Of a DNA stretch of 64,000 nucleotides, positions 29,985-33,079 are shown in pieces. The DNA is from Methanoculleus formosensis. GTDB taxonomy: Archaea; Halobacteriota; Methanomicrobia; Methanomicrobiales; Methanoculleaceae. Location: the NCBI RefSeq assembly GCF_025384765.1, contig NZ_VHLL01000002.1:496001-560000 (forward strand), written 5' to 3'. Positions within the stretch are counted from its first letter, which is position 1. Every line of letters starts with the position of its first letter. The position numbers and the translations under genes are program-made. The notes beneath the pieces were generated by a model, which saw nothing but the letters and a program-made list of their open reading frames with translations, was not told the origin of the DNA and ran no database searches.

Positions 29985-30926
29985 GTGGTACGGCAGTTGA
30001 AGGTAGAGAGGAGGGTAGGCCGCCTGGAGGGAGGCGATCCGTTCGGGGACTGGCTCGCGAGCGTCCTCGCCGACCGGTTGACCGGGTGGCGCGGCAAGAT
30101 CCGGGTCTACCGGGTGGAACCCGCATCGCACGTCGTCTGCCGGTATGAGTTTGGGACCGGACTCAGTGTAGTCGGCAAATTCTTCGGTGCGCCGACGGGT
30201 GCGAAGACCCGCTACAACGCGGATGCGGCGATGAAGAACGAGGTCCGCCGGCTCCGTCGCGCATCCTGCTGGATCCGCGTGCCCTGTGCCATCGCCACGA
30301 ACAGCCGGTTTCACTCGGTCCTCGTGACCGAACACGTCCCCGGCCCGACACTCCGCGAGCTCCTCGATGCGGGGGTATCCCTCTACGATCCCCTGACCGG
30401 CGTCGCGCACCTGCTCCGCCGGCTCCACGACGGCACGCGGACTTCCTGCAAGCGGGAGCGCGACTTCGCCTACTTTCACGCGCTGCTCGACCAGAACGCC
30501 CTTCCGGGTTCCCGGAGGGGAAAGTTCGACCGCCTGCTTGGGGAGTGGTGGCACAGCACGCGGCTCGATCGGGCGGGGTGCATGGTTCACGGCGACGCCA
30601 CGCCCGGCAACTACCTCTTCAACGGCGCTATCTGTGCCATCGACTTCGAAGGCGCCCGGAACCATACCCACCCGGTCCGCGACCTCGGGATCCTGGCCGC
30701 GGAACTCAAGACATCGCCTGGGATCGGCTCAAGGGCCGAGGACTACATCGGTCACCTGCTCTGGCATTACAGCCGGAGCGAGGAGGAGTTCCGACGCCAC
30801 ACCGCCGTCCTTCCCTTCTTCATGGCGCTCGGCCACCTCAGAATTGCCCGGCTGCCCTGGCGGGCGGCGGAACGCGACTGGCTTTTAGCGGAGGCGGAGG
30901 CGTGTCTTTGCGCGATCCACCGGTAG
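29985..30926 (+). CDS. Aminoglycoside phosphotransferase-family kinase
   Basis: A 313-residue protein-kinase-fold small-molecule kinase. The catalytic loop is MVHGDATPGNYLFN (HGDxxxxN) and the metal loop is IDFEGA. The N-lobe holds VVGKFFG with a likely ATP Lys. The real substrate is unlikely to be an antibiotic in a methanogen; sugars, amino alcohols or lipids are options. The start is GTG 29985 (TTG 29997 is an alternative); a TATA box, AGTATAAAGG, lies at about 29909-29918. The next gene starts inside its end, so the two form an operon. Confidence 0.82.
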   Translation: MVRQLKVERRVGRLEGGDPFGDWLASVLADRLTGWRGKIRVYRVEPASHVVCRYEFGTGLSVVGKFFGAPTGAKTRYNADAAMKNEVRRLRRASCWIRVPCAIATNSRFHSVLVTEHVPGPTLRELLDAGVSLYDPLTGVAHLLRRLHDGTRTSCKRERDFAYFHALLDQNALPGSRRGKFDRLLGEWWHSTRLDRAGCMVHGDATPGNYLFNGAICAIDFEGARNHTHPVRDLGILAAELKTSPGIGSRAEDYIGHLLWHYSRSEEEFRRHTAVLPFFMALGHLRIARLPWRAAERDWLLAEAEACLCAIHR

Positions 30927-31564
30927 AAGGGGTTCTCTTCGACTGCTACGGGACGCTCATCGATATCCTGACCGACGAGCGCGATATCAGGACCTACCGG
31001 TACCTCTCGTGGTGGCTGATCTACCAGGGGGTCAGGATAGCCCCACAGGATCTGCGGGACCTCTACACCGGCCGGGTGCGGGAGGCCCTCGACCGGACCG
31101 GGGGCCCCCACCCGGAGGTCCGGGTCGAGGAGGTCTTTGCCGGCATCTGCGCTGAACACAGCATCTGGGAGATCGATACCGCACGGCTCGGTGCCGAAAC
31201 CGCCCGGGCGTTCCGGGCCGCGTCGATCCGGCGTCTCGGTGTCATCGAAGCGAGCCGGAGGCTGCTTGACCTCTTCTCGACGAAGAAGACAGGGACCGTC
31301 TCGAACGGGCAGCGGGTCTTCTCGGAGCAGGAGATGCGGGCGTTCGGGCTCTACGATCGTCTCGACTTTGTCATCTTTTCCTCAGATCTTGGCTACCAGA
31401 AGCCGGACCCGCGGATATACGCGGCGGCCCTCGACCGGATGGGGCTCCAGGCCCCTGACGTCCTCTTCATCGGGGACAACCCCGAAAACGACGTCGACGC
31501 GCCCCGGGAGATTGGGATGCAGGCGCTGCACGTCGAGGAGGCGTGGAGGCGCTACGGGGTCTGA
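30902..31564 (+). CDS. HAD-superfamily hydrolase (IA type)
   Basis: A 220-residue HAD enzyme. Motif I is FDCYGTLID with the nucleophile Asp14; the usual second Asp is Tyr16, as in haloacid-dehalogenase-like members. Motif II Ser is in TVSNGQ, motif III Lys in YQKPDP, and motif IV is IGDNPENDV. It likely hydrolyses a small phosphorylated or halogenated compound. GTG 30902 has GGAGGC just upstream and overlaps the kinase gene by 25 bases, so kinase and hydrolase are co-translated and may act on related substrates (inference). Confidence 0.88.
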   Translation: MSLRDPPVEGVLFDCYGTLIDILTDERDIRTYRYLSWWLIYQGVRIAPQDLRDLYTGRVREALDRTGGPHPEVRVEEVFAGICAEHSIWEIDTARLGAETARAFRAASIRRLGVIEASRRLLDLFSTKKTGTVSNGQRVFSEQEMRAFGLYDRLDFVIFSSDLGYQKPDPRIYAAALDRMGLQAPDVLFIGDNPENDVDAPREIGMQALHVEEAWRRYGV

Positions 31565-31647
31565 TACAGCGGGCCCGGTGGATATATGGTGCCCGGCCCA
31601 CCACTCCTCTTCACGCAAGATCATGACGATGTTTCACAGTTGGAAGG

Positions 31648-32322
31648 GTGATCCCGGTTTTTGCGGATAATACCCCGTCCGGTGACTGGATCGGGGTCGA
31701 CCTGAACACCACCGATCATCTCGCCGTCGTGGCCCACCCGGCGAGCGGGGGCGTGGTGATGCTCGGTGAGTTCCCGGGTGACGCCGATCACCGGGAGCAG
31801 TGCGGCAGCGCCGGGAAGGGCAAAAAGCGCAGGGCTGAACGGGATCGCGAAAGCCGTATCCGGGGCGACCTGAACAGGAGGGTCGCAAGCGAGATTGTAA
31901 AGATGGCCCGGCAACTCCAGTGCGGCATCAAACTTGAAGACCTCGCCGGCGCAGGTTTTACCGGGCGAGAGAAGCCGGGCACCCCCCTCCCGTTCGCCCG
32001 GCGCGACGGATCGTTTTACCACCTCCAGAACCTTATCGAGAGGCGGGCTCACGACGCCGGAGTTCCGGTCGCCCTCGTGGATCCGGCGCTCACGTCCCGG
32101 CGCTGCAGCCGGTGCGGAAAGCGGGGCGCTCGCAAGGGCAAACGGTTCCTCTGCCCGCACTGCCTGTATACCGGTCATGCCGATGCAAACGCGGCGTTCA
32201 ACATAGCAGCGGCACGGGTCTCGCCAGGTTCCCCCGAGCGGCGACCGCCCGCCATCACCCCATCTGCGCCCGGATGTGCTGCACCGTCTCGGGATACCGC
32301 TTCTCGAGACGGTTCTTCTTGA
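31648..32322 (+). CDS. TnpB/IS605 OrfB-like protein reduced to RuvC and zinc-ribbon domains
   Basis: A 224-residue protein that matches only the C-terminal half of TnpB. All three RuvC acidic residues are present: Asp18 (WIGVDLN), Glu97 (IKLEDL) and Asp179 (HADANAAFN). The zinc ribbon uses Cys153, Cys156, Cys169 and Cys172. The 79- and 82-residue spacings resemble those of full TnpB, so the nuclease domain looks complete while about 170 N-terminal residues (WED/REC, RNA- and DNA-binding) are missing. The frame opens only at 31627. There is no partner tnpA or clear element ends. The last 68 bases overlap the convergent HEAT gene. It is either a decayed transposon gene or a domesticated mini-nuclease. 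Confidence 0.75.
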   Translation: MIPVFADNTPSGDWIGVDLNTTDHLAVVAHPASGGVVMLGEFPGDADHREQCGSAGKGKKRRAERDRESRIRGDLNRRVASEIVKMARQLQCGIKLEDLAGAGFTGREKPGTPLPFARRDGSFYHLQNLIERRAHDAGVPVALVDPALTSRRCSRCGKRGARKGKRFLCPHCLYTGHADANAAFNIAAARVSPGSPERRPPAITPSAPGCAAPSRDTASRDGSS

Positions 32323-33079
32323 GGTTCTCCCTCACGATCCACCGTATATCCTGATCGTCGAGGGTCGCAAGTTGCCGCAGGTACTCAAAGCCAGGCGTGG
32401 GGAGGGCGGCGATGACCACGCTGAGCGTGTAGCCGAGCGATTTTCGGAGCGCACGGAAGGCCTCGGACCGCCGCTCCTCTGCGGTGTAGATCCGGATCAG
32501 GATCTTCCTGTGGAACCGGAGCGCCGCCGCTGCAAGATCGGGCTCGCCCAGGAGATCCGGTTCGGCGATCCCCGCGATTGCGGCCCGCATGGCAAGCCAG
32601 GAACCTCCCTCCACCCAGACCTCCAGCTCCGTTACCACCGTATCACGCTGCCGGGAGAGGAGATCCTGAAGCCCCATCGCCACCGCTTCCCTGATCCGCC
32701 ACCGCGGGTCGAGGGAGGCCTCCGCGAGGTGTTCGAGCGCCGCACCGACACATGCCGGCGATGCCGACCCGATCGCCCCGATGCCCCTGACACCGCAGAA
32801 CCCGAGAAACTCGTGTGGATCGTCTGAGGGGGCATCCTCCGGCGCAACGTGGGCAAGCTCGACGCAGAGGTTCCAGAGCAGGCGCAGGTCATCGCGATCG
32901 GCGACGGCAAACTCCCGCACGGTCCCGGCAAACGCCGCCGCAAGCTCCAGGTTCGCCCGGGGTCCGGGAAGACGGCTCTCTGCGACCAGGAAGGCAAGCA
33001 GGTCTCCGGCGTCGCCACTCGAGAGAAAACTCGTGAGCAGCCGGGCAACCTCCTTGATGTAGGTCTCTTTACGGGTCAT
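32255..33079 (-). CDS. HEAT-repeat protein
   Basis: A 274-residue all-helical protein with repeating amphipathic helix pairs (DPRWRIREAVAMGLQDLL, SLGYTLSVVIAALPTPGFEY, DDQDIRWIVRENLKKNRL). The last pair is the type found in HEAT-repeat proteins related to DNA alkylation repair (AlkD-like) families, but no active-site residues are assigned. It probably acts as a protein- or nucleic-acid-binding scaffold. It is 42 bases upstream, in the same direction, of the small GTPase gene, and converges on the TnpB-like gene. Confidence 0.75.
   Translation of the reverse strand: MTRKETYIKEVARLLTSFLSSGDAGDLLAFLVAESRLPGPRANLELAAAFAGTVREFAVADRDDLRLLWNLCVELAHVAPEDAPSDDPHEFLGFCGVRGIGAIGSASPACVGAALEHLAEASLDPRWRIREAVAMGLQDLLSRQRDTVVTELEVWVEGGSWLAMRAAIAGIAEPDLLGEPDLAAAALRFHRKILIRIYTAEERRSEAFRALRKSLGYTLSVVIAALPTPGFEYLRQLATLDDQDIRWIVRENLKKNRLEKRYPETVQHIRAQMG

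What the first reader, a model, noticed from the sequence alone, without database searches (positions are those of the whole stretch)
31648..32322. TnpB-like protein with complete RuvC site and zinc ribbon but no N-terminal half
Asp18, Glu97 and Asp179 and the CxxC pairs are intact, with spacings close to those of ISDra2 TnpB (D191, E278, D361). The WED/REC part needed for guide RNA and target DNA is absent, and upstream codons are closed by a stop at 31624-31626. Decayed TnpB genes normally lose the active site as well; keeping it suggests selection for a minimal nuclease or a recent truncation.
Basis: partly seen in the sequence, partly recalled or inferred. Interest (0 to 1): 0.62.

Follow-up and report, generated by a model that had tools for sequence, protein, structure and literature searches.

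The report
Nuclease half of TnpB, domesticated
A group of methane-making archaea has kept, across several families, a gene for only the DNA-cutting half of a transposon enzyme that is normally steered by a guide RNA; the cutting site is intact and under selection, so the cells probably use it as an unguided nuclease of their own.

Summary
The window gene (31648-32322, +) encodes only the nuclease lobe of TnpB (RuvC plus zinc ribbon); the WED/REC half is absent. It is neither decay nor a fresh truncation. Short forms occur in four families of Methanomicrobiales. All 41 in the tree form one clade (100/99) whose sister is a full-length Methanoliparum TnpB, so the half was most simply lost once. 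In all 46 aligned copies D18, E97, D179 and the four zinc cysteines are invariant. dN/dS is about 0.16. The gene is nearly always single-copy, at a conserved locus (APH-HAD-[gene]-HEAT-GTPase in Methanoculleus; PfkB-Dph6-DUF2070-[gene] in Methanoregula), with its own TATA-like box. Viral relatives with a matching N-terminal profile are all full length. The missing half is nowhere in 18 genomes checked, and in several closed genomes the short gene is the only TnpB-family gene, so it needs no full-length TnpB in trans. Patchy loss in Methanoculleus, and two copies lacking the Glu segment, show it is dispensable.

Best reading: a domesticated, guide-independent RuvC nuclease aimed by substrate structure or a partner protein. 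Activity and substrate are inferred. The most novel reading not excluded is an RNA replacing the lost lobe. I found no description in the papers searched.

The parts
31648..32239 (+). Short TnpB-derived gene, conserved part (residues 1 to ~197): NUC lobe only (RuvC-I, helices, RuvC-II, TNB zinc ribbon, RuvC-III)
   Evidence: Orthologues aligned; Pfam; NCBIfam; AlphaFold2 model pLDDT 81.7, pTM 0.75; Foldseek best hits Cas12f/TnpB
31699..31701 (+). RuvC-I catalytic Asp (D18) in WIGVDLNTT
   Evidence: Invariant in 46 sequences; codon GAC
31936..31938 (+). RuvC-II catalytic Glu (E97)
   Evidence: Invariant in 46 sequences; codon GAA; segment deleted in the G016 and G158 copies, which are not in that alignment
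32104..32163 (+). TNB zinc ribbon, CxxC...CxxC (C153, C156, C169, C172)
   Evidence: Invariant in 46 sequences
32182..32184 (+). RuvC-III catalytic Asp (D179) in ADANAAFNIA
   Evidence: Invariant in 46 sequences
31583..31589 (+). TATA-like box TATATGG between the HAD stop codon and the gene (probable own promoter)
   Evidence: Conserved at the corresponding place in 11 of 12 copies of the genus; function inferred
32240..32322 (+). ORF extension, probably not part of the conserved protein; its end overlaps the HEAT gene antisense
   Evidence: Sister species stops at codon 198; the 32255-32322 match persists in genomes without the gene only because of the HEAT gene
30899..31564 (+). Upstream neighbour, HAD-family hydrolase (synteny anchor)
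   Evidence: Pfam PF00702; conserved next to the short gene
32255..33079 (-). Downstream convergent neighbour, repeat (HEAT-like) protein (synteny anchor; no Pfam match)
   Evidence: no Pfam family
29985..30926 (+). APH-type phosphotransferase (synteny anchor)
   Evidence: Pfam PF01636
33122..33607 (-). Small GTPase-like protein (synteny anchor)
   Evidence: Pfam

Best explanation
A TnpB of an archaeal transposon lost its whole N-terminal recognition lobe (WED/REC), most simply once, in an ancestor of several Methanomicrobiales families; the remaining nuclease lobe became an immobile chromosomal gene with its own promoter. The product most likely works as a stand-alone, guide-RNA-independent, metal-dependent RuvC nuclease. 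It would use the D-E-D triad to cut DNA or RNA bound by its basic RuvC/TNB surface, with the target chosen by substrate structure or by a protein partner (in the Methanoregula branch perhaps through the conserved C-terminal tail, often ...ENLLAVLE). Shown by sequence: single clade, missing lobe, purifying selection, invariant active site, conserved loci, no full-length TnpB needed. Inferred: nuclease activity, guide independence, substrate, role of the tail. The role must be accessory, since the gene has been lost cleanly many times in Methanoculleus.
For: Orthologues of the short form in 12 genomes of the window's genus (one with a deletion) and 2 of a second genus, all at the same kinase-HAD-X-HEAT locus where the contig allows a check; further short forms in at least three other families. 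Tree: 41 short forms one clade, 100/99, sister to full-length Methanoliparum L050 at 97/93. N-terminal profile present only in the 9 full-length relatives and near no short form; absent from all 18 short-form genomes while it finds 4 copies in the positive control G120. Catalytic and Zn residues invariant in 46 sequences of 32-91% identity to the window copy. dN/dS: closest pairs 0.07-0.12 (YN00); ML omega 0.159 and 0.166. In closed genomes G111, G139, G157, G192, G193, G194 the short form is the only TNB gene above cut-off. All 31 viral-contig relatives that match the N-terminal profile carry it in the same frame as the nuclease part. The cut falls at the REC-NUC linker of ISDra2 TnpB (RuvC from residue 185; PMC10097598). 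The RuvC site of AmaTnpB is needed for its RNA processing (PMC10278001). Complete RuvC fold predicted; basic core, pI 9.0-10.3.
Against: No biochemical or expression data. RuvC domains of TnpB/Cas12 are normally opened only by a guide-target duplex, so a lone NUC lobe may be inactive without an activator. The gene is missing from 23 of 35 genomes of the window's genus and about 17 of 39 in the Methanoregula genus (including incomplete assemblies). In three copies of the window's genus the basic hairpin after RuvC-I is deleted, and the genus lacks the C-terminal tail, so selection there may be partly relaxed. The locus differs between families, so context gives no functional hint.
Confidence: 0.55

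Rival explanations
1. Still RNA-guided: the NUC lobe pairs with a bulky RNA (from its own leader or elsewhere in the genome) that replaces the lost WED/REC lobe, as IscB/IsrB use large omegaRNAs in place of a REC domain.
For: The triad and TNB are kept intact; the Methanoregula branch keeps a basic helix hairpin that, by profile register, falls where ISDra2 TnpB contacts its omegaRNA (PMC10097598); a conserved ~110-nt leader lies between a TATA box and the start codon in Methanoregula.
Against: No consensus structure in the leader; no Rfam match at the window locus; no well-conserved stretch downstream of the gene in Methanoregula; three copies of the window's genus have deleted the hairpin; the lost WED domain normally holds the pseudoknot and, with REC, the TAM (PMC10097598).
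Confidence: 0.13
2. Catalysis is not used: the protein is a nucleic-acid-binding or structural factor that happens to keep the triad.
For: A lone RuvC lobe may be autoinhibited; the G016 copy keeps an open frame without the Glu segment.
Against: D, E, D are invariant across 46 divergent sequences in which most columns vary; a binding role alone does not need all three carboxylates.
Confidence: 0.13
3. It acts in trans on resident full-length TnpBs, as an omegaRNA processor or dominant-negative regulator.
For: The window genome has seven other TNB-domain genes; the TnpB RuvC site processes omegaRNA (PMC10278001).
Against: Several closed genomes keep the short form and have no other TNB gene above cut-off; some genomes of the genus with several full-length TnpBs lack it.
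Confidence: 0.06
4. Split enzyme: the missing WED/REC half is supplied by a separate gene.
For: Would explain an intact NUC lobe.
Against: The clade's N-terminal profile finds nothing in 18 short-form genomes although it finds all four copies in the control G120, and nothing near any short form.
Confidence: 0.03
5. Decaying transposon remnant or fresh truncation without function.
For: Patchy presence in Methanoculleus; in-frame loss of the Glu segment in G016 and a broken copy in G158; lost tail and hairpin in parts of the genus.
Against: dN/dS about 0.16; invariant active site; one clade across several families; conserved start region and TATA box; single copy at conserved loci.
Confidence: 0.05

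Closest known systems
TnpB of IS200/IS605-type elements (ISDra2 TnpB, PDB 8h1j/8bf8)
   Same: NUC lobe: RuvC D-E-D triad, zinc-ribbon TNB, order and spacing; NCBIfam guided_TnpB matches its second half
   Different: No WED/REC lobe, no recognisable omegaRNA, immobile, nearly always single copy, vertically kept
Full-length TnpBs of the same clade (Methanoliparum L050; G120 four copies; viral contigs such as L154-L182)
   Same: About 34-45% identical to the window copy over the NUC lobe; (W/F)(I/V)GVDxNTTGH-type signature
   Different: They carry the ~130-aa N-terminal half (MILTYK...) and G120 has four near-identical copies; the short clade has neither trait
Cas12f (AsCas12f, PDB 8dzj/7wju)
   Same: Best PDB sequence and fold matches
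   Different: Cas12f is a guided full-length dimeric effector with a CRISPR array; no CRISPR-like repeat array in this window and no REC/WED here
TldR (TnpB-derived, RNA-guided transcription factors; PMC13418256)
   Same: A TnpB exapted for a host or phage function
   Different: Opposite loss: from general knowledge TldR drops the nuclease and keeps guidance; here the nuclease site is kept and the guidance lobe is lost
IscB/IsrB (no REC domain; PMC10097598)
   Same: RuvC-family OMEGA nuclease lacking REC
   Different: They use a bulky omegaRNA; none was found here
RuvC resolvase (Thermus RuvC, PDB 4ep5)
   Same: RNase H-like fold of similar size, possible functional analogue as an unguided nuclease (weak Foldseek match, E=0.013)
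   Different: No sequence relation detected; the zinc ribbon and DED arrangement are TnpB type

Membership tests
TnpB (RNA-guided endonuclease of IS200/IS605) | RuvC D-E-D catalytic triad | tested here: met
   Invariant in 46 aligned short forms
TnpB (RNA-guided endonuclease of IS200/IS605) | CCCC zinc-ribbon TNB domain | tested here: met
   PF07282 E=1.9e-18; four Cys invariant
TnpB (RNA-guided endonuclease of IS200/IS605) | N-terminal WED/REC lobe | tested here: not met
   Stop upstream; N-terminal profile absent near short forms and from 18 genomes
TnpB (RNA-guided endonuclease of IS200/IS605) | Curated guided_TnpB model above cut-off | tested here: not met
   Window 81.4 and L051 97.6 bits against 100; of the short forms tried only the g3 copy L018 passes, at 111.9
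TnpB (RNA-guided endonuclease of IS200/IS605) | omegaRNA overlapping the 3' end | tested here: inconclusive
   No Rfam hit at the window locus, downstream region not conserved in Methanoregula; bound RNA not testable here
TnpB (RNA-guided endonuclease of IS200/IS605) | Resides in a mobile element | tested here: not met
   Nearly always single copy at conserved loci
Cas12f / type V CRISPR effector | Adjacent CRISPR array | tested here: not met
   No CRISPR-like repeat array in the 64-kb window
Cas12f / type V CRISPR effector | Full-length guided effector with REC lobe | tested here: not met
   As for TnpB; NCBIfam Cas12f2 82.9 bits against a cut-off of 450
TldR | Inactivated RuvC site with retained guide-binding lobe | tested here: not met
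   Triad intact, lobe absent
Guide-independent RuvC/RNase H-type nuclease (functional claim) | Cuts nucleic acid without a guide RNA | not testable with these tools
   Needs biochemistry

The most novel reading that the evidence does not exclude
A nuclease-lobe-only TnpB derivative that is still RNA-guided, using a host-encoded RNA (for example from its conserved leader) in place of the whole WED/REC lobe: at about 190-260 aa it would be among the smallest RNA-guided nucleases and a new way of building one.
Probability: 0.1. Interest if true: 0.92.

Novelty: new variant of a known kind. Interest (0 to 1): 0.64.

Why it matters
TnpB is known to have given rise to Cas12 and Fanzor (guidance and cutting kept) and to TldR (cutting lost, guidance kept). 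This family is the reverse case: the guidance lobe is gone and the cutting lobe is kept under selection. If the protein is active without a guide, it shows that the RuvC lobe can be released from RNA control and reused by a host, and it gives a small natural model for asking what gates RuvC in TnpB and Cas12. If it turns out to use an RNA, it would be a new minimal architecture. Proteins for a direct test are at hand in sequenced Methanoculleus and Methanoregula genomes.

Tried and rejected
Fresh truncation: rejected by the clade structure and dN/dS. Split gene: N-terminal profile absent from 18 genomes. Trans role on resident TnpBs as the general function: rejected by genomes with no other TNB gene above cut-off. 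Virus-borne short form: the viral contigs carry full-length relatives only, apart from a few with frame breaks or no N-terminal match. Plasmid copies: only two distant bacterial TnpBs. CRISPR association: no array in the window. Rfam at the window locus: nothing. Structured RNA leader in Methanoregula: RNAalifold predicts no pairs, although the leader has conserved sequence blocks. Upstream small ORF read by eye in the Methanoregula leader: not consistent between copies. Functional hint from neighbours: the neighbours differ between families, none obviously related to nucleic acids. Long upstream open frames in some copies (for example 412 codons in L016) are GC-rich spurious frames over the HAD gene. 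Literature: seven text searches gave no report of a nuclease-lobe-only TnpB family; most subscription papers are not in that library, so an existing report is possible.

Full report
OBSERVATION. The ORF at 31648-32322 (+) exists as described, with an in-frame TGA at 31624-31626. It has the TNB zinc-ribbon domain (PF07282, E=1.9e-18), and the NCBIfam guided_TnpB profile aligns only from position 194 to 388 of 389. In ISDra2 TnpB the WED/REC lobe occupies residues 1-176 and RuvC starts at 185 (PMC10097598, read), so the gene begins at the hinge between the recognition and nuclease lobes. D18, E97 and D179 sit at 31699, 31936 and 32182. The 3' end needs correcting: conservation stops near residue 190, the sister species stops at codon 198, and 32255-32322 overlaps the convergent HEAT gene in antisense. 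Matches to this tail in genomes that lack the gene come from the HEAT gene.

DISTRIBUTION AND LOCUS. A search of the 40 genomes of the family found 14 short forms: the window copy, 11 more in its genus (G016 with a deletion) and two in another genus. Where the contig allows a check they lie at the same locus, APH kinase - HAD - short gene - HEAT - GTPase. None has an N-terminal half; most start with ATG or GTG 11-20 codons before WIGVDLN. A named-genome scan assigns relatives to Methanoculleus, Methanoregula and other Methanomicrobiales, plus full-length relatives in Methanoliparum, a Micrarchaeota bin and a Hodarchaeota bin. An order-wide search of 232 genomes found short forms in families f1, f4, f5 and f6. 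In Methanoregula the locus is a different one, PfkB - Dph6 - DUF2070 - short gene, conserved across 14-16 loci. About 22 of 39 genomes of that genus have the gene, one copy each except G167 with two. Genomes of the window's genus without it show HAD and HEAT with only a short interval, for example G004, G005, G007 and G013, best read as clean loss.

ORIGIN. A tree of 57 nuclease lobes puts all 41 short forms in one clade (100/99), sister to the full-length TnpB of Methanoliparum (97/93). Some branches inside and outside are long, so finer placement is unsure. The clade's N-terminal profile hits only the nine full-length relatives. In whole genomes it is absent from all 18 short-form genomes tested, while it finds four copies in the control G120. 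In viral contigs all 31 relatives with an N-terminal match are full length, one with a frame break (L186); the remaining few have no match to this profile, and some of those are fragments. One truncation followed mainly by vertical descent is the simplest account; how the gene came to lie at different loci in different families is unknown.

SELECTION. D18, E97, D179 and the four cysteines are invariant in 46 short forms that are 32-91% identical to the window copy. Pairwise dN/dS (YN00) is 0.119 for the window copy against its sister, 0.096 for L017/L020 and 0.067 for L011/L012. Maximum-likelihood omega is 0.159 for the window's genus and 0.166 for Methanoregula-type copies (computed, read from the log). 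Columns were filtered for filling, so variable regions weigh less, and omega is an average over sites. A TATA-like box is conserved before the gene: TATATGG in 11 of 12 copies of the genus and a GATATAT-type box in most Methanoregula copies.

INDEPENDENCE FROM TNPB. In closed genomes G139, G157, G111, G192, G193 and G194 the short form is the only TNB-family gene above cut-off; the remaining weak hits at 22-25 bits lie mostly in ~335-aa frames that I take to be a different zinc-ribbon protein. So the general function does not need a full-length TnpB or its omegaRNA.

STRUCTURE AND MECHANISM. AlphaFold2 gives a complete RuvC fold with the inserted zinc ribbon (window: pLDDT 81.7, pTM 0.75; L051: 77.1, 0.70). 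Closest solved folds are Cas12f and TnpB, closest sequences likewise. The core is basic (pI 9.0-10.3). The RuvC site of AmaTnpB is required for its RNA processing (PMC10278001), so RNA is a possible substrate besides DNA. Three copies of the window's genus lack the basic hairpin after RuvC-I; by profile register this is near the ISDra2 residues that touch omegaRNA, which argues against omegaRNA use there, though this register was not checked residue by residue. Most copies outside the window's genus have a C-terminal tail, in Methanoregula commonly ending ENLLAVLE, possibly for a partner. From this I infer an unguided nuclease aimed by substrate shape or partner; none of that is shown.

LIMITS. 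No expression or activity data. Many relatives are MAGs. Absence in incomplete genomes is not proof of loss. G016 and G158 lack the Glu segment, so single copies decay. The window's genus may be under partly relaxed selection.

NOVELTY. Text searches found no description of a nuclease-lobe-only TnpB family, but that library lacks most subscription papers. It fails tested defining features of TnpB (WED/REC lobe, mobility, model cut-off), Cas12f and TldR, while its descent from TnpB is clear: a new variant of a known kind.

Noticed in passing
L048-L062 (Methanoregula loci), last ~10 residues of the short protein: Conserved C-terminal motif, often ENLLAVLE or GNLLYVLE, absent from the full-length relatives and from the window's genus; may be a partner-binding tail.
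   Followed up: partly
Methanoregula loci, about 110 nt upstream of the start (for example L051:5845-5967): Leader between a TATA box and the start with conserved blocks (GGAGGA, GTACAGCGG, AGGTGATC); no consensus RNA structure predicted. Role unknown.
   Followed up: partly
L022/L063 (G016) and L119 (G158): Two independent copies have deleted the segment with the catalytic Glu; G016 stays open, G158 looks broken.
   Followed up: partly
G034: 55 TNB-domain matches in one genome of the window's genus, many of them short fragments: a burst of TnpB elements or assembly fragments.
   Followed up: no
L016:2097-2843 (+), also L041 and L047: A ~240-aa membrane protein gene sits between the short gene and the HEAT gene in some copies; related sequences occur downstream in several Methanoregula loci.
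   Followed up: no
BFVD UPI000018F643: A 246-aa viral protein of similar size is the best viral fold match (E=1.6e-9, 29% identity); whether it is an independent nuclease-lobe-only form was not checked.
   Followed up: no
L064 (Micrarchaeota bin): A full-length relative of the clade split by a frame break between its N-terminal parts.
   Followed up: no
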